From assembly GCA_038843675.1 (NCBI GenBank), contig JAWBRV010000008.1, forward strand, positions 1-64,000: a stretch of DNA of 64,000 nucleotides. The letters are read 5' to 3'. Shown here one piece after another: positions 1,917 through 24,733 of this stretch (position 1 is the first letter of the stretch; each line of letters starts with the position of its first letter). Source of the DNA: Candidatus Bathyarchaeia archaeon (GTDB lineage Archaea > Thermoproteota > Bathyarchaeia > 40CM-2-53-6 > CALIRQ01). Under the pieces are notes generated by a model. That model had not been told where the DNA came from and did no database searches. It saw only the letters and a program-made list of their open reading frames with translations. A program made the translations under genes and the position numbers.

Positions 1917-3044
1917 CTACATCCATGGATCTAGGACGGCCTTCACGACCTTCCAATCCCTGACCATTTCAACGGCCTTCGTCGTTTCCTCGAGCGGGAA
2001 CCTATGGGAGACGAGGTCCGCGAACTTGTATTTGGAATTGGTCCTCGCCATGAACCTCACGGCCCTCCAAGTATGCCTCGGCTCCCATGAGTAGGAGCCC
2101 TTGATCGTTATGTGCTTGAAGGTCACCCAGAACGGATGGAAGCCCTCAACGGGACCCGCGTCCATGAATTGGCCAACGACCACGTAAGTCCCACCGTCCC
2201 GGGCCATCCTAACGCCTTCCGCGAAGGCGTTCGGGACCCCGGAGCATTCGAAGACCACATCGGCGCCCTGTCCCCCGATCGAATACTCCTTCACGAGCCT
2301 TATACGCTCTTCCGGATCCTTGACCTCCGATATATCTATCGTATGATCCGCGCCCCACTTCTTGGCCAGCTCCAAGCGCTCCTTCGGTCCGCCGATCACA
2401 ATGACCTTATCCGCCCCCGACTCCTTGGCGATTATGGTTCCGAAGAGGCCCACGGCCCCGCTCCCTTGGACTGCGACCGTGTCCCCCTCCCTTATGCCCG
2501 CCCTCTCGGATGCGTGGATCATCGTCGGCGCCGCGCATCCGACTGCGACTAGGGCATCGGCCGGCAGGTCCTTCGGAAGCTTGAAGACGGCCGTCTCCGG
2601 GAAGAGGTAGCAATATTGGGCCCATCCGCCGGTGAAATGCGGGGGCTTATCGCATGAGAGCGCCGCCCCATATGTCCTCCTATTGAGGCATTTGTTTGGT
2701 ATGCCTGCTACAACGCAGTTATAGCATCGATAGCAATATCGACCTATCGTCGTGGGCCAAGTGATTCGATCACCGACCGATATGGGCTCCCCGGCCCAAT
2801 CTCTCTCCACACCCTCCCCGAGTGCTGCGATCTCCCCAACGTTCTCATGGCCCAATATGACCGGGAATGATAAGACCTTCCCGCCTGTATGGCCGAGCCA
2901 AGTGTGGACATCGGTGCCACAAATGCCCGCCGATAGCATCCTGACCAATATGGCGCCCGGCTCAACCTTCGGCAGCGGATATTCCCTGACTTCGAAAGGC
3001 TTATTGAATCCTACCATCACAGCGGCCTTTCCCTTCTCGGGCAA
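1917..3044 (-). CDS. Zinc-dependent medium-chain alcohol dehydrogenase
   Basis: Medium-chain dehydrogenase/reductase of the Zn class, 375 residues as usual. Visible features are the catalytic zinc ligands (CGTDVH at about 42-47, GHEN at 65-68), a structural zinc loop with cysteines at about 104, 107, 110 and 119, and the nucleotide motif GSGAVG near 194-199. It probably oxidises a secondary alcohol, polyol or sugar alcohol with NAD(P)H exchange; substrate cannot be read from sequence. The start is TTG with GGTGATC a few bases upstream, and an AT-rich box (AATTTATAATT) lies 40-50 bases before it. An internal ATG (residue 10) is an alternative start. It sits beside the creatininase-family gene on the same strand and may belong to the same catabolic island. 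Confidence 0.85.
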   Translation of the reverse strand: MPEKGKAAVMVGFNKPFEVREYPLPKVEPGAILVRMLSAGICGTDVHTWLGHTGGKVLSFPVILGHENVGEIAALGEGVERDWAGEPISVGDRITWPTTIGRYCYRCYNCVVAGIPNKCLNRRTYGAALSCDKPPHFTGGWAQYCYLFPETAVFKLPKDLPADALVAVGCAAPTMIHASERAGIREGDTVAVQGSGAVGLFGTIIAKESGADKVIVIGGPKERLELAKKWGADHTIDISEVKDPEERIRLVKEYSIGGQGADVVFECSGVPNAFAEGVRMARDGGTYVVVGQFMDAGPVEGFHPFWVTFKHITIKGSYSWEPRHTWRAVRFMARTNSKYKFADLVSHRFPLEETTKAVEMVRDWKVVKAVLDPWM

Positions 3045-3151
3045 GGACGATCACCATATATTGATCATAGGGCCAATAGGGCCAATTTATAATTCTTAAC
3101 AAGAAGATTAAAAGATAAACAATTTATGCATAGATAGGGAGGGGATGAAGA

Positions 3152-4042
3152 CTAGATCCTATCGTCGAACTCCCTGTTTTTCACCTCGACCTTCAGCTTC
3201 TTGACCTCCTCTATGAACTCGGCTAGCTTACCGGCCCAAATCCTGTATATCTTCTCCGCCTTCTCCGCGCTCGCGTTGGCCGGGTTCCCAACTATTCCCG
3301 TATCGCAATATTCGTGATGCTCCATCGGTAGGTAAATCATCTGGTCTTGGCCCTTGAAGATCACATAGGGGTTCCCAGCGTTCTTGCCGAATTTATCCTG
3401 CGGCAGGTACTTGGGCGCATGAACATCGCTCTTCTTCCAAACGGCCCTCTCCCAAGAGCAAGCCTCAGGATGGTACATCAGGCAGAGCGAGAACTCATCC
3501 TCGCCTGCGTGCCATCCGGGCCACTCATCCGGCGGGTTTTGTAATATAGCTCTAATCTCCGGCATCAATGGGGCGAACTCGGCATCGGCCCTGAAGAGGG
3601 CGGTGAAAGCCCCGGTCTTATATTTGATTATTCTGAGTATCGGGTCTATGACCTTTATGTTTGAGGTATGGCCCGTGACATAGATCAATTTGTTGAAGCC
3701 GTGGTGGATGAGGCTCCTCCCAATATCGTACATCAGGGCCTCATATGTGCTGGCCCTAACGGTTATCGTACCGGCTCCGGAGCCCGGCGGCCTCATATGA
3801 TGGGGTGAATAGCCGAACCAGACCAATGGGGTATGGAGGACCTGCGCCTTCTCAGCGGCCCATTTGGTCACTATCCATGCGCCTAGGCTATCCGTGGAGA
3901 GCAGGGCCGCGGGCCCATGCTGCTCGCAGCTCCCAACCGGTATCAGGCATATATCGGTTTTCTTGAGCCATTCGGCGACGTCGTAGGCGGTCATCTCGAA
4001 TATGTTGTATTTCGAATACCACCAATCCGGATATACGGGCAT
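3152..4042 (-). CDS. Creatininase-family amidohydrolase
   Basis: Creatininase/FAPy-deformylase superfamily metalloenzyme, 296 residues. Metal-binding residues of the family are visible: E40 and H42 in GSCEQHGP, D51 in STDSLG, and the HAGE motif near residue 180. Members hydrolyse cyclic amides or formamides (creatinine, mycofactocin precursor, FAPy). The residues do not define the substrate. It lies 107 bases upstream of, and on the same strand as, the alcohol dehydrogenase, and is divergent from the AOR gene, sharing a 115-base promoter region with it. Confidence 0.8.
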   Translation of the reverse strand: MPVYPDWWYSKYNIFEMTAYDVAEWLKKTDICLIPVGSCEQHGPAALLSTDSLGAWIVTKWAAEKAQVLHTPLVWFGYSPHHMRPPGSGAGTITVRASTYEALMYDIGRSLIHHGFNKLIYVTGHTSNIKVIDPILRIIKYKTGAFTALFRADAEFAPLMPEIRAILQNPPDEWPGWHAGEDEFSLCLMYHPEACSWERAVWKKSDVHAPKYLPQDKFGKNAGNPYVIFKGQDQMIYLPMEHHEYCDTGIVGNPANASAEKAEKIYRIWAGKLAEFIEEVKKLKVEVKNREFDDRI

Positions 4043-4120
4043 CCGCCATCACTTCGCGATGACTAAACGCCTCCCTAGTTAATATTCCTTTCCGAAATAA
4101 GCCCTTCGCGGAACGAATGT

Positions 4121-4130
4121 TTTATAAATA
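4121..4130 (+). promoter_or_regulatory. TATA box of the AOR-moaD operon
   Basis: TTTATAAATA is a near-perfect archaeal TATA box. Its centre is about 32 bases before the ATG at 4158, which predicts a transcript with a leader of only about 8 bases containing GAGGG. Confidence 0.6.
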
Positions 4131-4157
4131 ATTCCCAAACCCCTATTATCGAGGGAA

Positions 4158-6017
4158 ATGGCCATGGTTTATGGCTATGCCGGGAAGATTTTGAGGGTTG
4201 ACCTGAGCGCGGGGAAGACCAAGGATGAGCCGCTGGATATGGAATGGGCCAAGAAATTGATCGGCGGGGCCGGATATGCCGCGAAGATACTCTTCGAGGA
4301 GGTCGGCCCAGGGGTTGATCCATTGAGCCCGGAGAACAGGTTGATATTCATGACGACGCCCGCCATAGGGAGCGGCTTCCCATGCGGCAATAAGATGCAG
4401 GTAGTCGCTAGGTCCCCGCTGACAGGGATCTGGGGGGATGCCACCTTCTCGCCCAGATTCGCCCTAGAATTGAAGAGGGCCGGATATGATGGCATAGTGA
4501 TTCAAGGTAAGTCAAACAAACCCGTATATCTATGGATCTCTGATGGGAAGGTCGAGATAAGGGATGCAAGCAAGCTCTGGGGGAAGGAGACGTTCGAGAC
4601 AGTCGAATTGATCAGGAAGGAGCTTGGGGATGAGAGCGTCAGAGTCGTAGCGATAGGGCCCTCCGGCGAAATGCAGTTGAAGCTGGCCTGCATAATTAGC
4701 GACGATGGAAGGGCTGCGGGGAGGACTGGAATGGGCGCCGTTATGGGCTCGAAGAACCTCAAGGCCATAGCCGCCAAGGGCAGCGGGAAGATAGAGGTGG
4801 CGAACCCCGAGAAGATAAGGGCCCTATCCGCCGAGGCGATAAAGATATCGATGGAGAAAACTCAAGGCCTCAGGAATTTCGGGACTGCGGCCGGAGTCCT
4901 AACATTCGAGGAGATGGGCAACTTGCCGATAAGGAATTGGACTAGGGGGAGGTTCCCAGGGGCACCGAACATATCTGGCCAAAGGATGGCCGAGACGATC
5001 CTCACGAATAGGGAGGCTTGCTTCACCTGCCCGATCGCCTGTGGCAGGTACGTGGAGGTCAAGGAGGGCCCATATAAGATGAAGGGCTTCGGTCCGGAGT
5101 ACGAGACGATCGCCATGCTAGGCTCCGATTGTTGGATCGATAACCTCGAGGCCATAGCGAAGGCGAACGACATATGCAATCGCTATGGTATGGACACGAT
5201 ATCCGTCGGCGGTACGATAGCCTTCGCCATGGAGTGCTACGAGAAGGGTCTGATCACCAAGCAGGATACCGGTGGGCTGGAATTGACTTGGGGCAACCAC
5301 GAGGCGATGGTGAAGCTCGTTGAGCAGATGTGCAAGAAGGAGGGTTTCGGGGCCGTATTATGCGATGGCTCGAGGATCGCTTCACAGAGGATAGGGAAGG
5401 GCTCCGAGAAATACGCCATGCAAGTGAAGGGGTTGGAGCTCCCGGCCCATAACCCATATAGGTTCAAGACGATGGGCTTGAACTACGCGACGGGCAATAG
5501 GGGCGCCTGCCACAACAGGGGTTCGCCAGCTTATCCGGCGAGAGGGATCACGAGCCCTGAAATAGGCCTCGGAGAGAAATATGATGGGTTCTCCCCGGTC
5601 GGCGGCGGAAGGATCACCAAGATCCATCAAGATGCCTGCGCCCTAGTGGATTCCTTCGGGATGTGCAAATTCATGCAGTTCTTCGGCGGGCTCAACCTGA
5701 ATATGATGACCGAGCTCTACAACGCGATAACGGGACTCAATGCTACCCTTGAAGAGCTCATGAAAGCTGGGGAACGCATATGGAACCTGCAGAGGGCCTT
5801 CAGCGTCAGGATGGGCCTCACGAAGAAGGACGATAGGCTTCCGGAGCGCTTCCTAAAGGAGCCGCCGCCGGATGGCGCTATAGCCGGCCAAGTCGTCGAG
5901 TTGGATCAAATGCTCGAGGAGTACTATAGGGAGAGGAAATTGGACGCGAACGGCAGGCCGAGCGAGGAGAAGCTGAGGGAGCTCGGCTTGGACTTCGTGA
6001 TCAAGGCGCTTCGTTGA
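4158..6017 (+). CDS. aor: Aldehyde:ferredoxin oxidoreductase (tungsten pterin enzyme)
   Basis: Tungsten-dependent aldehyde:ferredoxin oxidoreductase family, 619 residues, full length. It opens with the family's GYAGKILRVDLS start. The [4Fe-4S] ligands are CFTCPIAC near residue 290 plus a late cysteine in DSFGMC near 500, giving the C-x2-C-x3-C...C pattern of AOR. The enzyme oxidises aldehydes to acids and reduces ferredoxin, using a bis-pterin W cofactor. A MoaD/ThiS-type gene follows after 6 bases, as often seen for AORs, and may help make or supply the pterin. Strong TATA box upstream. The physiological aldehyde is unknown; the adjoining dehydrogenase and sugar kinase suggest a product of sugar or polyol breakdown. 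Confidence 0.93.
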   Translation: MAMVYGYAGKILRVDLSAGKTKDEPLDMEWAKKLIGGAGYAAKILFEEVGPGVDPLSPENRLIFMTTPAIGSGFPCGNKMQVVARSPLTGIWGDATFSPRFALELKRAGYDGIVIQGKSNKPVYLWISDGKVEIRDASKLWGKETFETVELIRKELGDESVRVVAIGPSGEMQLKLACIISDDGRAAGRTGMGAVMGSKNLKAIAAKGSGKIEVANPEKIRALSAEAIKISMEKTQGLRNFGTAAGVLTFEEMGNLPIRNWTRGRFPGAPNISGQRMAETILTNREACFTCPIACGRYVEVKEGPYKMKGFGPEYETIAMLGSDCWIDNLEAIAKANDICNRYGMDTISVGGTIAFAMECYEKGLITKQDTGGLELTWGNHEAMVKLVEQMCKKEGFGAVLCDGSRIASQRIGKGSEKYAMQVKGLELPAHNPYRFKTMGLNYATGNRGACHNRGSPAYPARGITSPEIGLGEKYDGFSPVGGGRITKIHQDACALVDSFGMCKFMQFFGGLNLNMMTELYNAITGLNATLEELMKAGERIWNLQRAFSVRMGLTKKDDRLPERFLKEPPPDGAIAGQVVELDQMLEEYYRERKLDANGRPSEEKLRELGLDFVIKALR

Positions 6018-6023
6018 GCTCAA

Positions 6024-6287
6024 ATGAGGGTAAGGATAAAGCCGCTCGGGATCCTAAGGGATTTGGCGGAGAGCGCCGTCGTAGAGGTGGAGCTCAGGGA
6101 AGGGTCAACCGTGGGCGATCTTATCGAAGAGCTCGATCGTAGATATAGGGGATTCAAGGAAGCCGTCATGAAGCCATACGTGACGATAGCCGTCAACGGA
6201 AGGGAGATAGAATTCGCCAAGGGCCTCGAGACCGAGCTCTCGGATGGAAGCGTGGTGGCCTTCCTCCCGCCCTACGCCGGCGGCTAA
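6024..6287 (+). CDS. MoaD/ThiS-family sulfur carrier protein
   Basis: An 87-residue beta-grasp protein ending in the essential Gly-Gly (PPYAGG), the site that is adenylated and thiocarboxylated. Members donate sulfur to the molybdopterin/tungstopterin dithiolene (MoaD) or to thiamine. Its place 6 bases after the AOR gene argues for a MoaD role in tungstopterin supply. No E1-like or MoaE gene is visible next to it, so the activating enzyme must be elsewhere. Confidence 0.85.
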   Translation: MRVRIKPLGILRDLAESAVVEVELREGSTVGDLIEELDRRYRGFKEAVMKPYVTIAVNGREIEFAKGLETELSDGSVVAFLPPYAGG

Positions 6288-6326
6288 TCCCTTTCCTTCT
6301 TTATATTTCCATTCCAAAAGCTAGGC

Positions 6327-6336
6327 TTATATTTTA
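6327..6336 (+). promoter_or_regulatory. Putative TATA box of the FGGY kinase gene
   Basis: TTATATTTTA lies about 55 bases before the TTG start at 6388 and would give a leader of about 30 bases. It separates the kinase from the AOR-moaD unit although they run in the same direction. Confidence 0.35.
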
Positions 6337-6387
6337 TGAAAAGGGCTACTTCGGCCTATAATAAGAAGTAGCGGGGAAGATGCCGAA

Positions 6388-7929
6388 TTGGGCTATCTGT
6401 TGGGTTGCGATGTCGGTACGACCGGCTGCAAGACCCAAATATTCGATGCGGAGGGGAAGCTCGTTTCCCAATCCTATAGGGAGTACCCCCTGATCTACCC
6501 AAGGCTCAGATGGGTCGAGGCCGATCCGGAGGGACATTATTGGTGGGCCGTTAGGGAAACGTTCAGCGAGGCCATAAAGAGGAGCGGGATAAATCCGAGG
6601 GACATAGAGGGGATATCGGTGAGCTGTACAAATTGCATATTGGCGGTCGATAAGAACGGCATGCCCCTAAGGAACGCCATAATGCAATTGGATAAGAGGA
6701 TGGTCCCCCAAGCCGAGTGGATAAGGGAGCACATAGGGGCGAAGAGGATATTCGAGAAAACTGGCAATAGGATATCCGCCGGTGGGACCGCGGCGCCAAC
6801 GATACTATGGATCAAGGAGGAGGAGCCAGAGGTCTTCGAGAAGACGTATAAGTTCCTTTATCCAACGGGTTATATAGTACAAAAACTAACCGGGAAGTTC
6901 TCCATCGAGTACAGCAGGGCCTCATTCACGATATTATTCGAGGTCGGCGGGAGGAAGACTTGGTGCGAGGAGATATGCGAAGAGATGGGCATACCGATAG
7001 ATAAGCTCCCTGATATATACGCCCCTTGGGACGTCGTTGGGGAGGTCACGGAGGAAGCGGCGAAGGCCACGGGACTGGCCAAGGGAACCCCGGTCGTGGC
7101 CGGCATGGCAGATACGCCAGCGGCCGGCTTGGGGACCAAGGCCGCTAGGCCAGGGGACTTCTTCCACGTCATGGGAACGGTTGGCCGACCATCAATAATA
7201 ATGGATGAGCCGAAATTCGATGATAGGTTCGTTAACATCTGCCATGCCGTCCCGGGGACTTGGATGTCCTTCGGGGTAATGGAGGGTTGCGGGATCTCGG
7301 TGCGCTGGTTCCGGGATCAATTTGGGAAATTGGAATCGATCCTCGGGAACGATATAGGCAAAAGCCCCTATGAGCTATTGGATGCAGAGGCGGAACGCTC
7401 CCCACCGGGGGCTAGGGGCATAATCTATCTCCCCTATATAGCGGGCGAAAGGCATACGCCGATATGGGATCCGAACGCTAGGAGCGTGTTCTTCGGAATC
7501 ACCGCGAGCCATACGAGGGCCGATGTATTCCGATCTATATTGGAGGGCTTGGCGTTCGGGTTGAGGCATAACATGGAGATCTTCGAGAGCATCGGCCTGA
7601 GGATAAGGGAGATTTTGATAAGCGGTGGGGTATCGAAGAGCAAGGTGGGGATGCAGATACACGCCGATGTGACCGGAAAGCCTGTGATGAACGTGAATAT
7701 ACCCGATAGCGAACCATTTGGGAACGCCGTCTTGGCCGGGTATGGCGTTGGGGTTTATAAGGATATCCCGACGGCTGAGGACGAGTTGATAAAGATTGTC
7801 AGTGTCGTGAAGCCTAGGGCGGAATATTACGAACTATATAGTAAATTGTTCGAGATCTATAAGGACCTCTATTGGCACCTAAAGGAGGACTTCGAAAAGC
7901 TCAGCCGGATAGAGCAGGTGGCCAAATGA
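6388..7929 (+). CDS. FGGY-family carbohydrate kinase
   Basis: FGGY sugar kinase of the xylulokinase/gluconokinase type, 513 residues. N-terminal phosphate motif GCDVGTTGCKTQIF and the C-terminal ATP-site motif ISGGVSKSK are both present, so both actin-like domains are complete. It should phosphorylate a ketose, polyol or sugar acid with ATP in the cytoplasm; substrate class cannot be read from these motifs. The TTG start is chosen because the conserved N-terminus begins right after it. Downstream, 49 bases away, is the UPF0261 protein; upstream the AOR unit. The set looks like a sugar/polyol-derivative degradation module. Confidence 0.88.
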   Translation: MGYLLGCDVGTTGCKTQIFDAEGKLVSQSYREYPLIYPRLRWVEADPEGHYWWAVRETFSEAIKRSGINPRDIEGISVSCTNCILAVDKNGMPLRNAIMQLDKRMVPQAEWIREHIGAKRIFEKTGNRISAGGTAAPTILWIKEEEPEVFEKTYKFLYPTGYIVQKLTGKFSIEYSRASFTILFEVGGRKTWCEEICEEMGIPIDKLPDIYAPWDVVGEVTEEAAKATGLAKGTPVVAGMADTPAAGLGTKAARPGDFFHVMGTVGRPSIIMDEPKFDDRFVNICHAVPGTWMSFGVMEGCGISVRWFRDQFGKLESILGNDIGKSPYELLDAEAERSPPGARGIIYLPYIAGERHTPIWDPNARSVFFGITASHTRADVFRSILEGLAFGLRHNMEIFESIGLRIREILISGGVSKSKVGMQIHADVTGKPVMNVNIPDSEPFGNAVLAGYGVGVYKDIPTAEDELIKIVSVVKPRAEYYELYSKLFEIYKDLYWHLKEDFEKLSRIEQVAK

Positions 7930-7978
7930 GGCCGCGGACGGCCCCTTGGTTCCCCATCCGGGGAGTTTTTAAGGAGGC

Positions 7979-9220
7979 ATGCGTAAGGCATGGGCGGTGC
8001 ATGGTTTGGATAAAACGGTCCTGATAATAGCGACTTTGGATACGAAGGGGGAGGAGGTCAGGTACATAAAGGAGAGGCTCGAGGATAAGGGCAAGCGCGT
8101 ATTGGTCATGGATTCTGGCACGCGCGGGGTCCCGATCGGCGTTAGGGCCGATATATCGAGGGAGGAGGTTGCGAAGGCCGCTGGATACGATATAAAGGAG
8201 ATCAGCGAAATGAGGCGCGGGCCCGCCATCGAGGCCATGAAGAAGGGGATAGCCAAGATCTGTAAGGAGCTCTACGAATCCGGGAGGATCCATGGCATAA
8301 TGTCCCTTGGAGGAGCCGATGGCGCCTGTTTGGCATCGGCGGGCATGCAGGTCCTGCCCGTGGGCATTCCGAAGCTCCTCATCTCCCCGGTCTTCCAAGG
8401 CAAAGAGACTTTCGGGGAGTTCGTCGGGACAAAGGACGTAATATGCATGCATTCCATGATAGACATACTCGGGATAAACCAGTTCAGCAGGAAGATATTT
8501 GATAATGCCGTTGGCGCTATGATCGGTATGCTCGACGCCGACGTTAGCCCAAAGATCGAGAAGAGCAGGATGATCGGAACGACCATGTATGGGAATACGA
8601 CGCCGGCGGTTATGAGGGCCAAGTCGCTCCTCGAAAGGGATGGATTTGAGGTCCTAGTATTTCATCCGAATGGGACCGGGGGGAGGATAATGGAGCAATT
8701 GGCCGAGGAGGGTATATTGGCGGGCGTCCTCGACATTACGCCCCACGAGTTCGTGGACGAGATGTATGGAGGACAGCATGCGGGTGGGCCGAGGAGGTTG
8801 GAGGTCGTCGGCGAAGCCGGTGTGCCGCAGGTCGTTGCGCCCGGTTGCGTTGACTTCATACTATGGGGAGGGCCGTTGCCGGAGAAGTATAAGGGTAGGA
8901 GGACCTATCCCTTCAACCCATACCTGACGCTCGTAAGGACAACCATTGAGGAGGCGAGGGAAATAGGCGAGACGATGGCTAGGAAGCTGAACAAGGCTAA
9001 GGGGCCCGTCACCGTGGTTGTGCCGCTTAGGGGCATGTCCATGTACAATAGGCCGGGCGATCCAATATACTATCCCGAGGCGGATGCGGCATTCCTTAAA
9101 GCCCTGAAGGAGAATTTGGACCCAAAGATAAAGCTAGTCGAGGTCGATGCCCACATAAACGACCCGATCTTCGCCGATACATGCGTTTCTGAGCTGAAGG
9201 CGCTCCTCGGGATGGTTTAG
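7979..9220 (+). CDS. Tm-1-like ATP-binding domain protein (UPF0261)
   Basis: About 413 residues of the UPF0261/Tm-1 N-terminal-domain family. The conserved start IATLDTKGEE and the loop GGADGACLA are present. Plant Tm-1 proteins bind ATP and block tobamovirus replication; microbial members are poorly characterised and often sit in sugar-acid or lactone degradation clusters. AAGGAGG at 7971-7977 is only one base before the ATG at 7979, and a TTTTTAA box lies just upstream, so initiation at GTG 7997 or TTG 8006 is also possible. The function in this cluster is unknown. Confidence 0.8.
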   Translation: MRKAWAVHGLDKTVLIIATLDTKGEEVRYIKERLEDKGKRVLVMDSGTRGVPIGVRADISREEVAKAAGYDIKEISEMRRGPAIEAMKKGIAKICKELYESGRIHGIMSLGGADGACLASAGMQVLPVGIPKLLISPVFQGKETFGEFVGTKDVICMHSMIDILGINQFSRKIFDNAVGAMIGMLDADVSPKIEKSRMIGTTMYGNTTPAVMRAKSLLERDGFEVLVFHPNGTGGRIMEQLAEEGILAGVLDITPHEFVDEMYGGQHAGGPRRLEVVGEAGVPQVVAPGCVDFILWGGPLPEKYKGRRTYPFNPYLTLVRTTIEEAREIGETMARKLNKAKGPVTVVVPLRGMSMYNRPGDPIYYPEADAAFLKALKENLDPKIKLVEVDAHINDPIFADTCVSELKALLGMV

Positions 9221-9233: not shown

Positions 9234-9911
9234 TCATCGCTTCAGGCCAAGCGCGCTTATTAACTCTTCGATGCCCTCCCCGGTCTTCGCGCTGGTCCTC
9301 ACGACGGTTATCCTTGGATTTATCCTCTTGGCCTCCCTCTCGAGGCCATTTGGATCTATGCCCATGTATTTCGCCATATCCATCTTGTTTATCACGGCCA
9401 CTTGAGAGGCCATGAATATGAACGGATGCTTAGCCACCATATATTCGCCCTCGGTCACGCTCACTACCACGACCCTCTTATGAGCCCCGAGCTCGAACTC
9501 CGCGGGGCAGATCAGGTTCCCGACGTTCTCTATGAATATTAAGTCCAAGGAGTCGAGATCCAAGGCCCTTAGGGCCTTCGCGACTAGGTTCGCGTCCAAA
9601 TGACATTCCCTTCCCGTATTCACTTGGATCGAAGTGATTCCTCTTTTTCGTATCCTCTCCGCATCGATCGAGGTCGTGACGTCGCCGGCTATGACGGCGA
9701 TCCTATATTTTTCCTTCAACGCTTCCGACAACAATTCCAATATTGCCGTTTTGCCCGATCCTATTGAGCCCATTACGTCTATGGCCACTATCCCCTTCTC
9801 ATCGAGAAGCCTCCTGTTAGAATTGGCTATCTCCCTGTTCTTCTTGAGTATGTCCTCCTCCAGCTCTATATCGAACACCTCCCCCTTCTCAGCGATTATG
9901 GGTTCCGGCAT
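9234..9911 (-). CDS. hypB: Hydrogenase/urease nickel incorporation GTPase HypB
   Basis: HypB, 225 residues. P-loop GSIGSGKT at about 48-55, the metal-site motif ECHLDANL, the switch segment IENVGNLICPAEFELG and the GTP specificity motif NKMD are all clear. HypB delivers nickel to [NiFe] hydrogenases with HypA. It lacks an N-terminal histidine-rich stretch. It overlaps the FmdE-like gene by 23 bases and is probably transcribed with it. hypA lies 6.6 kb away on the other strand, and no hydrogenase gene is in the window. Confidence 0.93.
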   Translation of the reverse strand: MPEPIIAEKGEVFDIELEEDILKKNREIANSNRRLLDEKGIVAIDVMGSIGSGKTAILELLSEALKEKYRIAVIAGDVTTSIDAERIRKRGITSIQVNTGRECHLDANLVAKALRALDLDSLDLIFIENVGNLICPAEFELGAHKRVVVVSVTEGEYMVAKHPFIFMASQVAVINKMDMAKYMGIDPNGLEREAKRINPRITVVRTSAKTGEGIEELISALGLKR

Positions 9912-10365
9912 GGATGAACGCTACTCCTCCACCCTTCGGCATCTTGCGAATCTCAAAAAGGTCGAGATCGCTTAAAGCCTTTATCTCCTCGACCGCCCTT
10001 TCGGAGAAACCCCTCTGGAGCAATTCCTTGATCATGCTCTCCACTTGGCCCTTCAATTCGATCTCCACGGCCATCCCATTGGCTTCAAATCTCCCCTTGG
10101 CCCTCCCGGAGTCCCGGATCCTTATATTCCCCTTGCCAAGCGTGCAAAGGGTCGAGACTTGCACCCCGTCGGCCACACAGGACAACGGCGGTTTTTGGCC
10201 CGTTTCCAGCGCCGCCGAGAGCCCATTCATTCCATTGGCCCCTAGGAGCGCCTTGGCCAAGAGCCCCATCCTCAAGCCGATGACCAAGTAGGGCCCCAGA
10301 TGGCCGTGGAACTCCGCCGCCCTAAATAAGAGGCTCTCGAAGGATTCATCAAATTTTGCCCTCAA
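9889..10365 (-). CDS. FmdE-like protein
   Basis: The segment FHGHLGPYLVIGLRMG near the N-terminus is the signature of the FmdE domain (named after subunit E of molybdenum formylmethanofuran dehydrogenase), with a further conserved cysteine region around PLSCVADGVQ. The C-terminal zinc-ribbon found in many FmdE proteins is absent. FmdE-domain proteins are often linked to metal or pterin enzymes, but their biochemical role is unsettled. A TTG at 10365 is preferred; an upstream TTG (10398) would extend it further into the neighbouring gene. Coupled to hypB by overlap. Confidence 0.7.
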   Translation of the reverse strand: MRAKFDESFESLLFRAAEFHGHLGPYLVIGLRMGLLAKALLGANGMNGLSAALETGQKPPLSCVADGVQVSTLCTLGKGNIRIRDSGRAKGRFEANGMAVEIELKGQVESMIKELLQRGFSERAVEEIKALSDLDLFEIRKMPKGGGVAFIHAGTHNR

Positions 10366-10888
10366 ACGGCCGAATCCCCCTCCTCCTAAGCGCCTCAACG
10401 ATTAAGAATCCCATGAACCCGCCCAAGGCCCCCCCGATCCCGTGGAGGGCCGCGAATATGAATATGCCGACCGCGTTCCCAATCCTCATCACCAAGGAGC
10501 CTATTATGAGCCCGGCGATGAATGCGCATGCTATGGAGGCGCTGATCGAGAAGGCCAGCGCTCCCACATCGCTCATGAAGAAACTCCTGCGCCTCCATAT
10601 GAATAGTAGGTCGAAGGCGATGCTGGCTATGAGGAAGCCGAGCATATGGAGCGCCTCCGGCCTTAGGGCCAAAGTCAATAGCGAAGATGCGATGCCCGTA
10701 GCCGTTGGGGCCCCGGGCCTACCTGACCAATATCCCACCAAGATTAGGGTGGAGAAGGTAAATATGTCGCACGCGAATGGCAAGCGGGTCAGGCTCCAGA
10801 ATATAGGCGCTACAGTAGCGTTCAGCACAACAAGGAGCGCTGAACAACTCGCCACGGCCACTGCGGTCCTCGAATCGATCCAGAGCAT
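10349..10888 (-). CDS. Small integral membrane protein, ECF transporter S-component-like
   Basis: A 179-residue protein with about five hydrophobic helices and short loops, resembling the substrate-binding S component of energy-coupling-factor transporters in size and glycine/alanine-rich helix composition. No definitive motif is visible and no EcfA/EcfT genes adjoin. It overlaps the FmdE-like gene and forms a unit with hypB, so transport of nickel or another metal/cofactor is an inference from context. The start is ATG at 10888, with an AT-rich promoter-like sequence 35-45 bases upstream. Confidence 0.5.
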   Translation of the reverse strand: MLWIDSRTAVAVASCSALLVVLNATVAPIFWSLTRLPFACDIFTFSTLILVGYWSGRPGAPTATGIASSLLTLALRPEALHMLGFLIASIAFDLLFIWRRRSFFMSDVGALAFSISASIACAFIAGLIIGSLVMRIGNAVGIFIFAALHGIGGALGGFMGFLIVEALRRRGIRPFEGKI

Positions 10889-11019: not shown

Positions 11020-11050
11020 GAACTTTGGGCAAAAAATTTTGGTGCTCAAC

Positions 11051-12061
11051 ATGATTGATAGGAAAGTTATCGCCGCAGTAATAGCGATAGTGATAATGGT
11101 AGCCGTAGGCGCCGGATTTTATATAAGCCAACAAAGGCCAGTGCAACCCGCCTATCCCACCTCCAACATAAAGCACATAATGCCTTGGAGCGCGGGCGGC
11201 GGAACGGACATTGTGATGAGGGCTTTCATGAATCATGCGGAAAAGTATCTGCCGGTAAAAATTTACACAGAAAACATTGTTGGGGCCAGCAGTGGGACCG
11301 GGGTTTACGCATTAATGGGATCCAAGCCGGATGGATACACCATTGGAACTCTCACTTGGGACAGCGTAATCACGGTGCCATTCTTCGGGTTGGTTCCCGG
11401 ATACGACTTGAATAAATTGAAGTTCATATGCACTGTGACGGATCATGCCACTTTAATAGCCGTTCATCGCGACTCCCCTTGGAAGACCCTTAAGGAATTG
11501 ATAGAGGACGCCAAGAGAAGGCCTGGGGAAATCTCCGTTTCCAACGTCGGGCTTGGAGGCGTATGGCATTTGCCCGTTCTCGATCTCGAGAGGAAGGCCG
11601 GCATTAAATTCCGTCACGTACCGTTCCCAGGAGGGGCAGCCCCGCAGAGGGAAGCCCTCATAAAAAGGGAAGTGGAGGTCGCATGTATAAGCTATGGGGG
11701 GATCTTCCCCGCCATTAAATCTGGGGATGCCCGAGTTTTAGCGGTAATGTCGGAAAGCAGGATTCCAGAGCTTCCTGATGTACCAACCTTTAAGGAGTTG
11801 GGATATGATATCGTTTGGGGCAGCTTCAGGGTGATAGCCGTCCCGAAGGATACGCCGGACTATGCCGTTAAGGCTCTTGAAGAGGCCTTCAAAAAGGCGG
11901 CCAACGATCCGGAGTTCAAAAAATGGTTATCGGAGGCGGGCGGCGGGGGATGGTCTTGGAAGGGCTCGGCTGAAACAGAAAAATATGTAAGGGAGATGCA
12001 AAAAAGCGCCTTCTTGCTCTTGGAAGAGCTAGTAAAGGAAGGAGTGATCAAGAAGTCTTGA
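11051..12061 (+). CDS. tctC: Tripartite tricarboxylate transporter substrate-binding protein (TctC family)
   Basis: TctC/Bug-family extracytoplasmic receptor, about 336 residues. One hydrophobic N-terminal helix (IAAVIAIVIMVAVGAG) anchors it to the membrane, followed by the family motifs MPWSAGGGTD near the start of the mature part and VGLGGVWH in the middle. It would capture a carboxylate outside the cell and hand it to TctAB. Two upstream in-frame codons (TTG 11039, GTG 11042) are alternatives; ATG 11051 starts just before the anchor helix. First gene of tctC-tctB-tctA. This family is common in bacteria and uncommon in archaea. Confidence 0.88.
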   Translation: MIDRKVIAAVIAIVIMVAVGAGFYISQQRPVQPAYPTSNIKHIMPWSAGGGTDIVMRAFMNHAEKYLPVKIYTENIVGASSGTGVYALMGSKPDGYTIGTLTWDSVITVPFFGLVPGYDLNKLKFICTVTDHATLIAVHRDSPWKTLKELIEDAKRRPGEISVSNVGLGGVWHLPVLDLERKAGIKFRHVPFPGGAAPQREALIKREVEVACISYGGIFPAIKSGDARVLAVMSESRIPELPDVPTFKELGYDIVWGSFRVIAVPKDTPDYAVKALEEAFKKAANDPEFKKWLSEAGGGGWSWKGSAETEKYVREMQKSAFLLLEELVKEGVIKKS

Positions 12062-12126
12062 TAAGCCCTCTTAATTTTATTTATTTGATGTAATGTTGGA
12101 TAACAAGATAGGGTGATTCGGTCTTT

Positions 12127-12585
12127 ATGAATTTCAATCGGGATGTATTATCCTCTCTTATCCTCATTGGGATTGCCACCATTTATTTGACGCAGATTCT
12201 TTCCCTCCCCCCTCCCTTCATTACTGAGGAGCCTGGACCGGCCCTTTATCCATTAATGATAGTTTTTGTAATTTACACATCCTCTTTTTGGATTTTGTTA
12301 AAGGGATTAAAGGGTGGAGGAAAGGCCCTATTCATGAAGGGATTATCGCGCCCTCTTGCTTTTATAATCCTTTCCGTATTATACATATCCATTCTAACAT
12401 CTATTGGATATTTCCTGAGCACTACATTATACACTCTAACCATTGCCCTAATGTTCGATTATGGAAAGAGAAGAATTGATAAATCGCTCGCCTATTGTTC
12501 CATCGTAGCCGTCTTAGTGACGCTCATAGGATATGTCTTGTTCGAAATCTTATTCGGTGTGTCCCTACCAAAGTGGGGAATATAG
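12127..12585 (+). CDS. tctB: Tripartite tricarboxylate transporter small membrane subunit (TctB family)
   Basis: A 152-residue protein with four predicted membrane helices, the layout of TctB. It lacks strong motifs, as usual in this family, so the call relies on size, topology and its place between tctC and tctA. The A+T content is higher than in the neighbouring operons. It ends 3 bases before the tctA start. Confidence 0.82.
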   Translation: MNFNRDVLSSLILIGIATIYLTQILSLPPPFITEEPGPALYPLMIVFVIYTSSFWILLKGLKGGGKALFMKGLSRPLAFIILSVLYISILTSIGYFLSTTLYTLTIALMFDYGKRRIDKSLAYCSIVAVLVTLIGYVLFEILFGVSLPKWGI

Positions 12586-12588
12586 TAC

Positions 12589-14094
12589 ATGGCAATCGAA
12601 ATAATTAACTGGCTCATTGCCCTCCTCCAACCAATAGTGTTTATCTCCTTTTTACTTGGTTTCCTAATAGGCTTGATATTCGGCATAATACCAGGCCTTA
12701 CCGCGACGTTGGCGATAGCATTGCTCTTGCCCTTCACGTTCGGGATGGAAACAGTTCAAGCCCTTGCTACCTGCGTGGCGATCTATGCCTCCGGTATATA
12801 TGGCGGAGGGATAACAGGCACTTTGATAAATATACCCGGAACGCCAGGGGGAGCGATAACGACCTTGGAGGGTTATAAATTGACTTTGAGGGGGAAGGCC
12901 GCGAAGGCCCTAACTCATGGGGCATTTTCATCAATGATCGGGGGGGTCCTAGGCACAATCTTGGCAATCATCCTTTTGGAGCCAATCGCCCGCGCCTCCT
13001 TGGTCTTTCAAACACACGATAAATTCTCCCTCGTCCTAATGGCCATCGTTGTTGTTTCGGTCCTAAATACCGAATCAATCGTTAAAGGGATCATTTCAAC
13101 AGCTTTGGGCTTGATGTTGGCAACGATTGGTATCGACCCGCTCCTTCCGATACCTAGGTTCACATTCGGTGTGCATAGCCTGACTGAAGGCATTAGCTTA
13201 ATAGCCGCCGTGGTAGGGATGTTCGCTGTTTCCGAAGTATTGAGGCAGATCGAGGTTGGCCTTGATCTATCGGAATTGGCCAAGAGGGGCCATCAGAAGA
13301 TCTCGAGGAAGGAGCTTGTACCCAAGCGCGAAGATTTTGGAAAGATCGGGCTTAAAATATATCCAAAGAGCGCCCTGATAGGCTTTTTCGTCGGGGTTCT
13401 GCCCGGGGCTGGCGCTGCCATGGCGGCCCTCTTGTCCTATGCCGAAGCCAAGAGGAGCTCCAAGCATAAAGAGGAATTTGGCGAGGGATCCTTGGAAGGA
13501 ATCGTAGCCGCTGAAACTGCAAATAATGCCATGTGCCCCGGGGCAATCATACCCATGCTGACCTTCGGGATACCCGGGGACTCCGTAACGGCCGTGATGC
13601 TAGGCGTCCTGTTGATACATGGCTTGATCCCAAGTCCTTACATAATGTTTGAGAAGGGCAATGTAGTTGGGCCAATGCTTGTGGGACTTATCATAAGCTC
13701 GATAATGTGCTATGTATCATTACTAATCCTTGGACCGTTGTATGCGAAAATATTGAACCTCAAGGGAACCGTCTTATATCCCTTCATTGCTATGATAGCG
13801 TTCGTGGGGGTTTATACGGCTACGTTCTCGATCCCGCAGCTTTGGATGGCGCTCTTCATAGGGGTCGCTACCTATCTGCTTTCCAAAGCGGATTATCCGT
13901 CCGTTCCATTCCTTATGGGCTACATCCTCGGCCCAATGTTCGAAAATTATCTCAGGACATCGCTATCTATAAGTAAGGGAAATCCCCTCATATTCCTGAC
14001 CAGCCCGCTGAGCGCGATCTTTCTCTTGCTTGCTGTGATATTTGCATATTTCCTAGGCGTAAGACTGTCGCGCGTTATGAAATCAATTCAATGA
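12589..14094 (+). CDS. tctA: Tripartite tricarboxylate transporter large membrane subunit (TctA family)
   Basis: A 501-residue integral membrane protein with about 11-12 helices. The conserved GIIPGLTATLA motif lies near the N-terminus and the repeat-related GVLPGAGAAMAAL near the centre, both signatures of TctA. With TctB it forms the ion-driven carboxylate symporter. The 3' end overlaps by 12 bases the end of the convergent unrecognised gene at 14083-14520. Confidence 0.93.
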   Translation: MAIEIINWLIALLQPIVFISFLLGFLIGLIFGIIPGLTATLAIALLLPFTFGMETVQALATCVAIYASGIYGGGITGTLINIPGTPGGAITTLEGYKLTLRGKAAKALTHGAFSSMIGGVLGTILAIILLEPIARASLVFQTHDKFSLVLMAIVVVSVLNTESIVKGIISTALGLMLATIGIDPLLPIPRFTFGVHSLTEGISLIAAVVGMFAVSEVLRQIEVGLDLSELAKRGHQKISRKELVPKREDFGKIGLKIYPKSALIGFFVGVLPGAGAAMAALLSYAEAKRSSKHKEEFGEGSLEGIVAAETANNAMCPGAIIPMLTFGIPGDSVTAVMLGVLLIHGLIPSPYIMFEKGNVVGPMLVGLIISSIMCYVSLLILGPLYAKILNLKGTVLYPFIAMIAFVGVYTATFSIPQLWMALFIGVATYLLSKADYPSVPFLMGYILGPMFENYLRTSLSISKGNPLIFLTSPLSAIFLLLAVIFAYFLGVRLSRVMKSIQ

Positions 14095-14558: not shown

Positions 14559-16289
14559 TTAATACACGTATCTAAGCCCAAGCTCCCTCGCCTTTTTAGC
14601 CCAAGAAGGCACGGGAGGGACCAATTCGTCCTCCGGTTTAACCCTCACCTCCACTAATGCTGGCCCTTCATCAAAAGCGCTTTTTAGGACAGGCCCAATA
14701 TCATTGGGGCCACATATCCTATATGCCATTAAGCCGAACCCCTCCGCAATCTTCACATAGTCGACATCGCTGAAATCTGTCGCAAAATATCTCGGGCCGT
14801 ATCCGAATCGAAAAGCCGCCCTTATCCATCCGAAGCTAACGTTATTAAATAAGATTATCTTAATATTCCCGCCAATTCTTTTGATGGTTTCCAATTCTCC
14901 TGCCGTGAATCCAAAGCTCCCATCGCCGGTTAAAGCGACTATGCAAGCATTCGGTCTTGCGCAAATAGCCCCAACACTTGCGGGGATGGCGTATCCTAAG
15001 GCTCCCAAGGCATAATTGAATATGATGCTCCTTCCGGCATTTTTCACTTTATAAAATGCTGAAGCGTATATCGCGCTAGTTCCTGGATCCGCGAGTATTA
15101 CGACATCTTTTGGAAGGATGGCAGATAGTTCCCTTATAAGCCTAAGCGGGTGTACGGGTTCTTCTTCGGATTCCATAAAGTCTCTTATGTATTCACTATA
15201 CTTTCTATATTCTTCGAAAATTGTTCTAATCCAAACTTCCTTACGAGTTTTTTTTGTAATATCTTTGCTTGCTATCTCCATCATTGTCCTCAGCGTTGCC
15301 TTCGCATCCCCAATCAATATCACATCTGTTCGATAGTTATTGCTTGCCTCTGCCTCGCTGATATCCAAGTGTATGATCTTCTTTTCTGAGTCTTGGGGCG
15401 GGAGCCTCCAATTATCCGTCCCAGCGGAATCGGTATTGCATCCGATATAGAATATCAGATCGGAATCCTCTATCACCTTATTAGAAAAACCCGTGCCACC
15501 GCGGGCACCAACGACCCCTATGGAAAGAGGATGAATTTCCGCAATACTCCCTTTACCGGTCATAGTAGTTCCTACCGGCATCCCGAAGAACTCGGCGATT
15601 TCTGCAACCTCATCCCAAGCTTGGGAATATAAAACCCCTTGACCACATATCACTACCGGTCTTTCGCTATTGTAGATTAGACGCAACGCCTCTTTGATCT
15701 TTTCTAACTCTGCAATTGGCCTATGCCCAGGATATTTGGTGAAATCTGGGTGCGCGTATATATCCGGCTCCTTAACGTCCTCCTCTAGGACGTCGATCGG
15801 CAATCTTAGGTGGACCGGCCCTGGCTTACCGGTGGTAGCGAGCCTGAACGCTCTTCTTATCGCATGGGGAATCTCTGAGGCCTTCGTTATTGTTATTGTT
15901 TCCTTAGTTATCCCTCTGAAAAGCAATGTTTGATCGATCCCAGTGAGCGCATTCTTTTTCTCGAGATAGAGCGGGACATCGGTTGAAAAAATTACCATGG
16001 GAACCGAGGCCTTGTAAGCTTCCGCCACTCCTGGGATAACATGGGTTGAGCCCACGCTCGGGCTTTCATTAACTCCAGGTTTGAATGAGAGCCTAGCGTA
16101 AGCGTCGGCCATGAAGCAAGAGCTCCTCTCATCCCTAGCTAGGATGTGGCGGATCTCTGGATAATTTAGCCACTCCACATACAAAGGCAGAGTGGTTTCA
16201 CCACAAAAGCCGAATACGTATTCAACATTATGCGCCCTCAATGTTTCAAGCAGAACCCTTCCAGCCTTCAAGGAATTTCCCCTTTTCAA
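14559..16289 (-). CDS. Thiamine diphosphate-dependent enzyme (acetolactate synthase-like)
   Basis: A 576-residue ThDP enzyme with the three-domain layout of acetolactate synthase, benzoylformate decarboxylase and sulfoacetaldehyde acetyltransferase. The catalytic glutamate is E31 in GFCGETT. The ThDP/Mg motif GDGSFGF near residue 450 is followed by NNVSFG. No regulatory small subunit gene adjoins, which argues against biosynthetic IlvB. Its neighbours, a tricarboxylate transporter and an unknown small protein, suggest catabolism of an imported 2-oxo or hydroxy acid. The exact reaction is open. Confidence 0.82.
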   Translation of the reverse strand: MKRGNSLKAGRVLLETLRAHNVEYVFGFCGETTLPLYVEWLNYPEIRHILARDERSSCFMADAYARLSFKPGVNESPSVGSTHVIPGVAEAYKASVPMVIFSTDVPLYLEKKNALTGIDQTLLFRGITKETITITKASEIPHAIRRAFRLATTGKPGPVHLRLPIDVLEEDVKEPDIYAHPDFTKYPGHRPIAELEKIKEALRLIYNSERPVVICGQGVLYSQAWDEVAEIAEFFGMPVGTTMTGKGSIAEIHPLSIGVVGARGGTGFSNKVIEDSDLIFYIGCNTDSAGTDNWRLPPQDSEKKIIHLDISEAEASNNYRTDVILIGDAKATLRTMMEIASKDITKKTRKEVWIRTIFEEYRKYSEYIRDFMESEEEPVHPLRLIRELSAILPKDVVILADPGTSAIYASAFYKVKNAGRSIIFNYALGALGYAIPASVGAICARPNACIVALTGDGSFGFTAGELETIKRIGGNIKIILFNNVSFGWIRAAFRFGYGPRYFATDFSDVDYVKIAEGFGLMAYRICGPNDIGPVLKSAFDEGPALVEVRVKPEDELVPPVPSWAKKARELGLRYVY

Positions 16290-19232: not shown

Positions 19233-20276
19233 ATGGATAATGAAGTTAAGGTAGTTATTTTTGGGCTCGGCCCAATGGGGAAAATGATCGCGAAGGGAAT
19301 CCTTGAGAAAAAGGGGATAAGGATCATTGGCGCCGTCGATATACTCAAGGACATCGTTGGAAAGGATTTGGGGGAGGTCTTGGAGCTAGGTAAGAACCTA
19401 GGGGTGACGGTTACGGATGACGCCGAGGGGCTCCTCTCCAAGGTCAAGGCGGACTTGGCCATAATAGCAACCAAATCCTACTTGAAGGACGTTTATCCGC
19501 AAATAGCCTTATGCGTCAAGGCTGGAATTAATGTGATATCGACTTGTGAGGAACTCGCGTATCCATATTATAAACATCCGGAGCTCTCGGCTGAGATCGA
19601 TGCGATGGCTAAGGAACATGGCGTAACAATTTTGGGGACGGGCATAAATCCCGGCTACTTGATGGATGCCCTCCCAATAACCCTCACGGGGGTTTGCCAG
19701 CGCGTCGATTCCATAAAGGTCGTGAGGATGATGGACTCGTCGAAGCGCAGGATCCCATACCAGAAGAAGATAGGCACCGGCCTAAGCCCCGAGGAGTTCA
19801 GAAGGGCGATAGAAAGCGGCAGCATAACGGGCCATGTGGGCTTGGTGGAGTCGATAGCGATGATAGCATCGGCCCTTGGATGGAAGCTCGATGCCATAAG
19901 GGAGTTTCCGCCCGAGCCGGTATTGGCCGATAGGGAGCTGAGGACGCCTTATACGACCGTCAAGCCCGGCCAAGTGGCGGGCCTAAAGAGCGTGGCGCAT
20001 GGAATGAGGAATGGCAAGCCCGTTATCGTCTTGGAGTTCATCTCCCACGCTGGCGTCGAGGAGGAGTATGAGTCCGTCACGATAGAGGGGGTCCCGAACA
20101 TAAGCGAGAAGATAGCTGGGGGCGTCCATGGCGATATTGGGACAGTGGGCGTCATAACGAACATGATCCCCAAGGTTCTCAACGCCCCTCCCGGATTGGT
20201 CACGATGAAGGATCTGCCTTTGCCATCGGCCGTCACCGAGGACCTGAGGGTCTACCTCAATTGGAGGAAATCCTGA
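19233..20276 (+). CDS. 2,4-diaminopentanoate dehydrogenase-like / dihydrodipicolinate reductase-fold enzyme
   Basis: A 347-residue NAD(P)-dependent dehydrogenase. Rossmann motif FGLGPMG at about 10-16, then ATKSYL and the GTGINPGYLMD segment found in 2,4-diaminopentanoate dehydrogenase and relatives in amino-acid catabolism. The known enzyme (Ord) oxidises 2,4-diaminopentanoate during ornithine fermentation; none of the other ornithine genes is visible here, so the real substrate may be another amino acid. It is convergent with the D-glutamate-cyclase-domain gene, 9 bases away. Confidence 0.72.
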   Translation: MDNEVKVVIFGLGPMGKMIAKGILEKKGIRIIGAVDILKDIVGKDLGEVLELGKNLGVTVTDDAEGLLSKVKADLAIIATKSYLKDVYPQIALCVKAGINVISTCEELAYPYYKHPELSAEIDAMAKEHGVTILGTGINPGYLMDALPITLTGVCQRVDSIKVVRMMDSSKRRIPYQKKIGTGLSPEEFRRAIESGSITGHVGLVESIAMIASALGWKLDAIREFPPEPVLADRELRTPYTTVKPGQVAGLKSVAHGMRNGKPVIVLEFISHAGVEEEYESVTIEGVPNISEKIAGGVHGDIGTVGVITNMIPKVLNAPPGLVTMKDLPLPSAVTEDLRVYLNWRKS

Positions 20277-20285
20277 AGATCCATT

Positions 20286-21275: not shown

Positions 21276-21401
21276 AATCGTCCCAACAATTGGTATTGTT
21301 AACAGTTATTTAAACTTCCCCAATCATATTGCCGACAAATAGGCTTTCCCAATGGAGACATCGCCAAATCTTTTGAATAGATTCTCAAGCGCATTTGCCC
21401 C

Positions 21402-22106
21402 TCATATGCCCAAGTATGATTTTTTCATATATTCGTTATTCAAAAGGTGCTTTCCGGAGTCGCTCAACACAATCCTTCCAGTTTCCATCACATACCCCCT
21501 ATCGGCAATTTCTAGCGCACGCCAAACATTTTGCTCCACTAAAAGGATTGTGATACCTTGCCTATTTATTTCCCTGAGCAATTCGAAAACTTGGGCTACT
21601 ATTTTGGGAGCCAATCCAAGAGACGGTTCATCGAGCATCAATAGCTTTGGTTGTGACATTAAACCCCGCGCTATTGCCAACATCTGTTGCTCCCCCCCGC
21701 TCAGAGTTCCGGCTATTTGTTTCTTTCTCTCTTTCAAAATTGGGAAGAGTTCATATATCCATTTTAGGGTTTCATCCCTAGCCTTCCTCGCCTTTGGTGT
21801 GATAGCTCCCAGCTTCAAATTTTCCTCAACGGTTAAGCGAGTGAATAGCATTCTCCCCTCTGGAATTAAGGCTATGCCTTTTTTTACCCTCTCATGAGGC
21901 GGAATTTTCGATATATCTTCCCCAGAGAAAATAATTGTACCATTTTTTGGATACATGAGTCCTGCAAGCACCCTAAGCGTAGTAGTCTTCCCCGCTCCAT
22001 TTGAACCAACTATTACAATTACCTCCCCCTCTTTTACGTAGAAGGATATATTCCACAAAACTTGGACATCTCCATAGGAGGCGCTAAGGCCTTCAACGCT
22101 AAGCAT
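21402..22106 (-). CDS. livF: Branched-chain amino acid ABC transporter ATPase LivF
   Basis: ABC ATPase, 234 residues. Walker A GSNGAGKTT, signature LSGGEQQ, Walker B LLMLDEPSLGLAP. The SLGLAP ending is typical of LivF. It overlaps livG by 8 bases. Last gene of livK-H-M-G-F. The operon imports branched-chain or other amino acids or amides; specificity resides in LivK. Confidence 0.93.
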   Translation of the reverse strand: MLSVEGLSASYGDVQVLWNISFYVKEGEVIVIVGSNGAGKTTTLRVLAGLMYPKNGTIIFSGEDISKIPPHERVKKGIALIPEGRMLFTRLTVEENLKLGAITPKARKARDETLKWIYELFPILKERKKQIAGTLSGGEQQMLAIARGLMSQPKLLMLDEPSLGLAPKIVAQVFELLREINRQGITILLVEQNVWRALEIADRGYVMETGRIVLSDSGKHLLNNEYMKKSYLGI

Positions 22107-23825: not shown

Positions 23826-23831
23826 TACATC

Positions 23832-24707: not shown

Positions 24708-24733
24708 TCGAGTTCAGCCCTCGTCGAAAGTCG

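What the first reader, a model, noticed from the sequence alone, without database searches (positions are those of the whole stretch)
1917..9220. Aldehyde oxidoreductase, MoaD, sugar kinase and UPF0261 in one catabolic island
A tungsten-type AOR with its own MoaD/ThiS protein is followed by an FGGY kinase and a UPF0261 protein, and is flanked by a Zn alcohol dehydrogenase and a creatininase-family hydrolase. This combination does not match a pathway I know. It could break down a polyol, sugar amide or lactone via an aldehyde that AOR oxidises. UPF0261 proteins are poorly characterised, so the cluster offers functional clues.
Basis: inference. Interest (0 to 1): 0.5.

Follow-up and report, generated by a model that had tools for sequence, protein, structure and literature searches.

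The report
Archaeal sugar-acid island with UPF0261 kinase
This is a six-gene set in one genus of uncultured Bathyarchaeia that most likely breaks down a sugar or sugar acid; its 'unknown' protein looks like a small-molecule kinase that travels with a metal hydrolase in many bacteria, a partnership I found nowhere in the papers I could search.

Summary
ADH, creatininase-family hydrolase, AOR, MoaD, FGGY kinase and UPF0261 lie at 1917-9220. All six are under strong purifying selection between two species (dN/dS 0.025-0.071). But 'island conserved across archaea' fails: the block is in 2 of 256 genomes searched in its class, both of one genus.

What is new here: (1) UPF0261 is no longer without a function. 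Its solved relative 9MPY (Saro_1862) binds acetovanillone, and is very probably MarK, described in print as a single-component kinase. The window protein has the same fold and MarK keeps 20 of 23 family-invariant residues. (2) UPF0261 proteins form two main clades, one linked to PEP-hydrolase-like proteins, one to this creatininase subfamily; the window's copy lies in the second. 27 of 80 UPF0261 loci carry that hydrolase within 1.5 kb on the same strand. (3) AOR relatives sit beside aldolases, and sometimes FGGY kinases.

Best reading: a sugar/sugar-acid route with two kinases, a hydrolase and a dehydrogenase, whose aldehyde product AOR oxidises. Substrate unknown. New variant of a known kind.

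The parts
1917..3044 (-). Zn-dependent medium-chain dehydrogenase (ADH)
   Evidence: PF00107/PF08240; best PDB match 1vj0, Zn alcohol dehydrogenase, 231 bits; below all NCBIfam equivalog cut-offs, including IolM 143.5 vs 450; dN/dS 0.042
3152..4042 (-). creatininase-family metal hydrolase of the UPF0261-linked subfamily
   Evidence: PF02633 174 bits; E40, H42, D51 in 36 of 36 rows and H125 in 35 of 36, S127 in 36 of 36 where creatininase has Glu122 (ligand numbers of creatininase recalled); dN/dS 0.025
4158..6017 (+). tungsten-type aldehyde:ferredoxin oxidoreductase (AOR)
   Evidence: PF02730+PF01314; 488-505 bits to solved AORs 1aor, 9g7j, 9mqx with the cysteine cluster motif, the later Cys, Glu and His all aligned (roles of these residues recalled)
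6024..6287 (+). MoaD/ThiS-like protein ending in Gly-Gly
   Evidence: PF02597; TIGR01687 70.5 bits, cut-off 49.5
6388..7929 (+). FGGY carbohydrate kinase, xylulokinase-like
   Evidence: PF00370+PF02782; best NCBIfam XylB 346 bits, below the 380 cut-off
7979..9220 (+). UPF0261 protein, probable ATP-dependent small-molecule kinase (MarK/Tm-1 fold)
   Evidence: PF06792+PF23189; AF2 model pLDDT 93; Tm-1 Z 41.5, 9mpy Z 33.1; creatininase-linked clade
11039..14094 (+). TctC-TctB-TctA uptake system, possible but doubtful part
   Evidence: PF03401 TctC; same parts beside UPF0261 and creatininase in Thermus, TctC 34% and TctA 34% to it; but decayed in G002 and of different base composition

Best explanation
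A catabolic island for a sugar or sugar acid. UPF0261 is an ATP-dependent kinase that phosphorylates a hydroxyl of a keto compound. The Zn-dehydrogenase makes the keto group and the creatininase-family hydrolase opens or cleaves the oxidised compound, as IolN does in inositol breakdown. The FGGY kinase phosphorylates a ketose-like intermediate. An aldolase encoded elsewhere cleaves the phosphate, and AOR, supplied with cofactor through its own MoaD, oxidises the released aldehyde to an acid with ferredoxin. Shown: the genes, their families, conservation and selection, the UPF0261 fold, the UPF0261-creatininase partnership, and AOR-aldolase-FGGY linkage in relatives. Inferred: every reaction and their order, and the substrate class.
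For: UPF0261: 9MPY solved with acetovanillone; MarK, a single-component kinase, starts acetovanillone catabolism in the same organism (passage); 20 of 23 family-invariant residues kept in the 9MPY protein. Partnership: creatininase subfamily in 29 of 80 UPF0261 loci, 27 on the same strand within 1.5 kb; label changes 4 on the tree against 20.2 in shuffles, 0 of 500 as low, and no creatininase beside any of the 60 rows of the other large clade. Sugar context: in Thermus the pair stands with class II aldolase, Zn-dehydrogenase, TIM-barrel isomerase-like protein and TctCBA; in L102 and L145 with DHDPS-type aldolase and transketolase parts, in L102 also RpiB; the UPF0261 paralogue on G000:C5 and its orthologue in G001 are followed 35-36 bp on by a class II aldolase. 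AOR: Chloroflexota L100 runs UPF0261-creatininase-Gfo/Idh-LarA-unknown-DeoC/LacD aldolase-AOR; aldolase beside AOR in 4 of 9 archaeal neighbourhoods; FGGY with class II aldolase near AOR and MoaD in G052.
Against: No aldolase or isomerase in the island itself. G002 has the island but not the C5 UPF0261-aldolase pair, so that aldolase cannot be a fixed partner. The one UPF0261 protein with a known ligand binds an aromatic ketone, not a sugar. MarK lies outside both large clades on a long branch. I could not read the MarK paper; MarK = Saro_1862 is my inference. The island's creatininase is 4 kb from UPF0261 and on the other strand, and its 95% copy in G001 sits at a different place without UPF0261 beside it. 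ADH and creatininase fall far below IolM/IolN cut-offs. 5 of the 9 AOR neighbourhoods show no aldolase next to AOR.
Confidence: 0.5

Rival explanations
1. Aromatic route: UPF0261 acts like MarK on a lignin-type phenolic ketone, with the other enzymes finishing side-chain breakdown; AOR handles an aromatic aldehyde.
For: The only ligand known in a UPF0261 protein is acetovanillone. T. roseum has UPF0261 near PEP/pyruvate-binding and PEP-utilising proteins.
Against: No biotin carboxylase, phosphatase, CoA ligase or beta-ketoacyl hydrolase, the later steps of the Hpe pathway, is among the island's genes. An FGGY sugar kinase sits in the same run. T. roseum's protein belongs to the other clade.
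Confidence: 0.12
2. Cyclitol route like Thermotoga inositol breakdown: ADH as IolM, creatininase as IolN, followed by kinases.
For: Both IolM and IolN models match (143.5 and 83.7 bits); bacterial partners include xylose-isomerase-like TIM barrels.
Against: Cut-offs 450 and 245 are far from met; HpnZ, Tdh and creatininase models score higher. No other inositol gene seen in the island.
Confidence: 0.13
3. Two unrelated operons that merely abut: AOR-MoaD-FGGY-UPF0261, and creatininase-ADH.
For: Divergent, and the creatininase has paralogues in the genome at 76, 55 and 50% identity, and a 95% copy in G001 standing next to an MFS-like gene.
Against: The window UPF0261 is in the creatininase-linked clade and its closest bacterial relative L071 also carries this creatininase, 54% identical, upstream. 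Matches of 47% or more occur in the class only in the three genomes that have this UPF0261 clade, though these are one genus, hence one event.
Confidence: 0.2
4. UPF0261 here is a regulator or binding protein, as Tm-1's virus-inhibiting role might suggest, not a kinase.
For: Tm-1 inhibits a plant virus (PMC5028733 passages).
Against: Family-invariant residues are kept and the genes lie in catabolic surroundings.
Confidence: 0.05

Closest known systems
MarK / Saro_1862 (PDB 9MPY), N. aromaticivorans
   Same: Same two-domain UPF0261 fold (Z 33.1, 34% identity); 20 of 23 family-invariant residues
   Different: Not in the same clade, aromatic substrate; MarK = Saro_1862 inferred, paper not read
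Tomato Tm-1 N-terminal region (3WRW)
   Same: Closest solved fold, Z 41.5
   Different: Tm-1 is fused to a PEP-hydrolase-like TIM barrel; the window copy is alone and in the creatininase clade
Thermus thermophilus plasmid pAA2-2b cluster (L153)
   Same: Creatininase 47.5%, UPF0261 37%, Zn-dehydrogenase 32%, TctC 34%, TctA 34%
   Different: Class II aldolase and isomerase-like protein instead of AOR, MoaD and FGGY; its UPF0261 is a long branch not placed in the clade
IolM/IolN of Thermotoga inositol catabolism (NCBIfam NF041097/NF041098; organism recalled)
   Same: Zn-dehydrogenase plus creatininase-family hydrolase
   Different: Scores well below both cut-offs
Kinase-aldolase-AOR sets in other Bathyarchaeia (L057, L179)
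   Same: FGGY kinase and AOR within about 1-3 kb
   Different: These carry a class II aldolase; no UPF0261 was seen beside them

Membership tests
UPF0261 / Tm-1-like | Both Pfam domains over cut-off | tested here: met
   172 and 254.7 bits, cut-off 27
UPF0261 / Tm-1-like | Tm-1 fold | tested here: met
   Z 41.5 to 3wrw, 384 aligned
MarK-type kinase | Family-invariant residues shared with 9MPY | tested here: met
   20 of 23; the rest L20Q, E239D, E325D
MarK-type kinase | ATP-dependent phosphorylation | not testable with these tools
   needs an assay
MarK-type kinase | Same clade as MarK | tested here: inconclusive
   MarK on a long branch outside both clades, support 84/49
IolM/IolN inositol enzymes | NCBIfam equivalog cut-offs | tested here: not met
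   143.5 vs 450; 83.7 vs 245
Creatininase (creatinine hydrolysis) | TIGR04448 cut-off 235 | tested here: not met
   89.8 bits; Glu122 is Ser
Xylulokinase XylB | TIGR01312 cut-off 380.25 | tested here: not met
   346.3 bits, best of the FGGY models
AOR (tungsten aldehyde oxidoreductases) | Both domains, Fe-S cysteines, Glu and His at the metal site | tested here: met
   residue roles recalled
GAPOR | NF040818 cut-off 1300 | tested here: not met
   41.8 bits
MoaD | TIGR01687 and C-terminal GG | tested here: met
   70.5 vs 49.5; ends AGG

The most novel reading that the evidence does not exclude
UPF0261 plus this creatininase subfamily is an undescribed catabolic pair of bacteria from many phyla and one archaeal genus. 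UPF0261 is a further, unrelated type of sugar-acid kinase beside FGGY and DUF1537 (the latter recalled), and the creatininase, with Ser in place of Glu122, is a C-C or ring hydrolase acting before it.
Probability: 0.35. Interest if true: 0.7.

Novelty: new variant of a known kind. Interest (0 to 1): 0.48.

Why it matters
UPF0261 is found in bacteria, archaea, fungi and plants and is mostly annotated as unknown or 'Tm-1-like'. A probable kinase member and a recurrent hydrolase partner make its function testable in culturable hosts such as Thermus thermophilus. It would also give Bathyarchaeia a defined, aldehyde-producing sugar route tied to a tungsten enzyme.

Tried and rejected
Filing ADH/creatininase as IolM/IolN: cut-offs not met. 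Filing the kinase as XylB: just below cut-off. Treating TctCBA as an assured part: G002 keeps only two TctA fragments and no TctC/TctB match, while all six core genes are intact; GC3 is 0.44-0.58 against 0.68-0.74 for the core; none of the 80 loci showed a TctC or TctA match at 1e-6. Treating the C5 class II aldolase as the missing step: its UPF0261 is absent from G002. F_bP_aldolase: none in the genome. DUF1537-like fold for UPF0261: no such entry among the rows shown; not an exclusion. Bacterial promoter/terminator scan: counts at chance (9 vs 6.5; 7 vs 6.8).

Greedy ORF picking hides true genes under longer opposite-strand frames; it hid the C5 aldolase until. Neighbour lists from those calls are therefore lower bounds. 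L071, L075 and L153 fell out of the tree (a stop codon in the matched stretch) and were put back. The tree rows include 80-locus matches plus archaeal and plasmid loci; rows under 330 matched residues were dropped. AOR-FGGY co-location was read by eye from two truncated lists, so no rate is claimed. In print: the searches showed no paper on a UPF0261-creatininase pair; most subscription papers are not in that library.

Full report
Observation. Two operons diverge from the 4042-4158 gap: creatininase then ADH on the minus strand, AOR, MoaD, FGGY and UPF0261 on the plus strand. A TATA-like stretch lies before AOR (around 4121) and another between MoaD and FGGY (read by eye), so FGGY-UPF0261 may have a promoter of its own.

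Spread. The window is from a 1.36-Mb genome. A same-genus relative, G001, seems to be Candidatus Bathyarchaeota archaeon RSWS8: the contig listed under that name (L090) has the length and match of G001:C11. G002, also same genus, has the six genes in the same order at 93-97% identity. dN/dS is 0.042 (ADH), 0.025 (creatininase), 0.050 (AOR), 0.057 (MoaD), 0.057 (FGGY), 0.071 (UPF0261); neighbouring KorB, HypB, HtpX, IF5B, IF2-gamma, Bud32, DHH and a nucleotidyltransferase range from 0.060 to 0.130, with dS alike. UPF0261 was found in 5 of 256 genomes of the class, 8 of 398 of the phylum sample and 5 of 101 relatives. The AOR has no close match in G001 (best 46%) and FGGY none.

What UPF0261 is. 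The model (pLDDT 93) matches tomato Tm-1 (Z 41.5) and 9mpy (Z 33.1), titled 'Saro_1862, a UPF0261 domain protein ... with bound acetovanillone'. The next matches are UDP-GlcNAc 2-epimerases, mostly over the N-terminal domain (Z about 13). A 2026 paper states that acetovanillone catabolism in N. [quoted passage not shown] Its source, Hall et al. 2025, is not held, so I have read nothing of it. That MarK is Saro_1862 is my inference from organism, ligand and date. Of 23 positions invariant in 58 UPF0261 sequences, the 9MPY protein shares 20.

The creatininase partner. The window creatininase has a match of 140 bits or more in 29 of 80, on the same strand within 1.5 kb in 27 and within 400 bp in 22, in Thermodesulfobacteriota, Planctomycetota, Chloroflexota, Acidobacteriota, Spirochaetota, Rhodothermota, Bacteroidota, Actinomycetota, Bacillota, Poribacteria, Balneolota and Atribacterota (record titles and tree labels). 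On a tree of 100 rows, one clade of 60 (weak support, 84/39) is linked to PEP-hydrolase-like proteins in 42 rows and to the creatininase in none; a clade of 28 (support 100/96) has 23 rows with the creatininase. The window, G002, the C5 paralogue and G001 fall in the second clade. Rebuilt with L071, window and G002 stand next to that Thermodesulfobacteriota protein (58% identity), whose contig also carries a 54% creatininase. The pairing of UPF0261 with the PEP-hydrolase-like ('TBST') proteins is known (PMC5028733, passages); the pairing with creatininases I did not find in print.

The subfamily keeps the metal ligands and has Ser127 in 36 of 36 rows (the window counted twice) where creatininase has Glu122. 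In the class, matches of 47% identity or more occur only in the three genomes of this genus; in the listed rows the best full-length match outside it is 39%. These three also are the only ones found with the creatininase-clade UPF0261; as one genus they are one event. Against a fixed unit: the genus has several such creatininases away from UPF0261, and in G001 the 95% copy is at the place where G000 and G002 have a 76% one.

Other companions. In Thermus thermophilus pAA2-2b: creatininase, UPF0261, class II aldolase, TctC, TctB, TctA, with a divergent Zn-dehydrogenase and TIM-barrel protein. In the window's own genome a UPF0261 paralogue on C5 is followed by a class II aldolase, as in G001. In L100: UPF0261, creatininase, Gfo/Idh, LarA, an unknown, DeoC/LacD aldolase with ferredoxin domains, AOR, TauE. 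In L102 and L145: DHDPS-type aldolase, creatininase and transketolase parts. Many Chloroflexota loci have instead a GlcD-like oxidase, a protein of about 360 aa without Pfam match and a TIM barrel.

AOR and FGGY. AOR matches classical AORs best. Its 58-60% relatives are six places in five genomes; a class II FBP-type aldolase is adjacent in three of the six (L174, L175, L176), and in L179 a 50% AOR follows a class II aldolase, with a TIM-barrel protein and FGGY kinase on the other strand. L173, L177, L178, L180 and L181 show no aldolase next to AOR in the lists read. FGGY's nearest relatives, in G052, sit with class II aldolase and a hydroxyacid dehydrogenase 2.5 kb from AOR, MoaD lying between, with a Zn-ADH-like gene (L056), or with a DeoC/LacD aldolase and an ADH-like gene (L058).

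Conclusion. A maintained, genus-restricted catabolic set. AOR's role as remover of an aldehyde is supported by context; UPF0261 as a kinase is likely by homology; the creatininase link is strong statistically but its reaction is unknown; the substrate is open. I rate it a new variant of a known kind, of moderate interest, mostly for UPF0261.

Noticed in passing
window 11039-14094; L046 1134-2272: TctCBA is decayed in the sister species G002: only two TctA fragments remain, no TctC or TctB match.
   Followed up: partly
window 9234-10888: HypB, FmdE-domain protein and a 179-aa protein without Pfam match stand together on the minus strand between UPF0261 and TctC, and are kept in G002 at 81-90% identity.
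   Followed up: no
window 19233-27180: A block with an ABC transporter and several amino-acid-type enzymes (names by eye) is missing at the syntenic place in G002.
   Followed up: no
L008 10229-12139 (G000:C5): UPF0261 paralogue followed 36 bp on by a class II aldolase; same pair in G001, its UPF0261 absent from G002.
   Followed up: yes
L166 1875-2765; L167 8815-9708; L168 8323-9183; L169 8449-9294: Creatininase family expanded in this genus; G001 has at the C2-type place a copy 95% identical to the window's, G000 and G002 a 76% one.
   Followed up: partly
L100 1390-10599: Chloroflexota run UPF0261-creatininase-Gfo/Idh-LarA-unknown-aldolase with ferredoxin domains-AOR-TauE.
   Followed up: partly
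L071 231-3678: Second creatininase-family gene and a DUF169 gene beside the closest bacterial UPF0261.
   Followed up: no
window 14559-16289: Thiamine-diphosphate-type enzyme (by eye) downstream of TctA on the other strand; not tied to the island.
   Followed up: no
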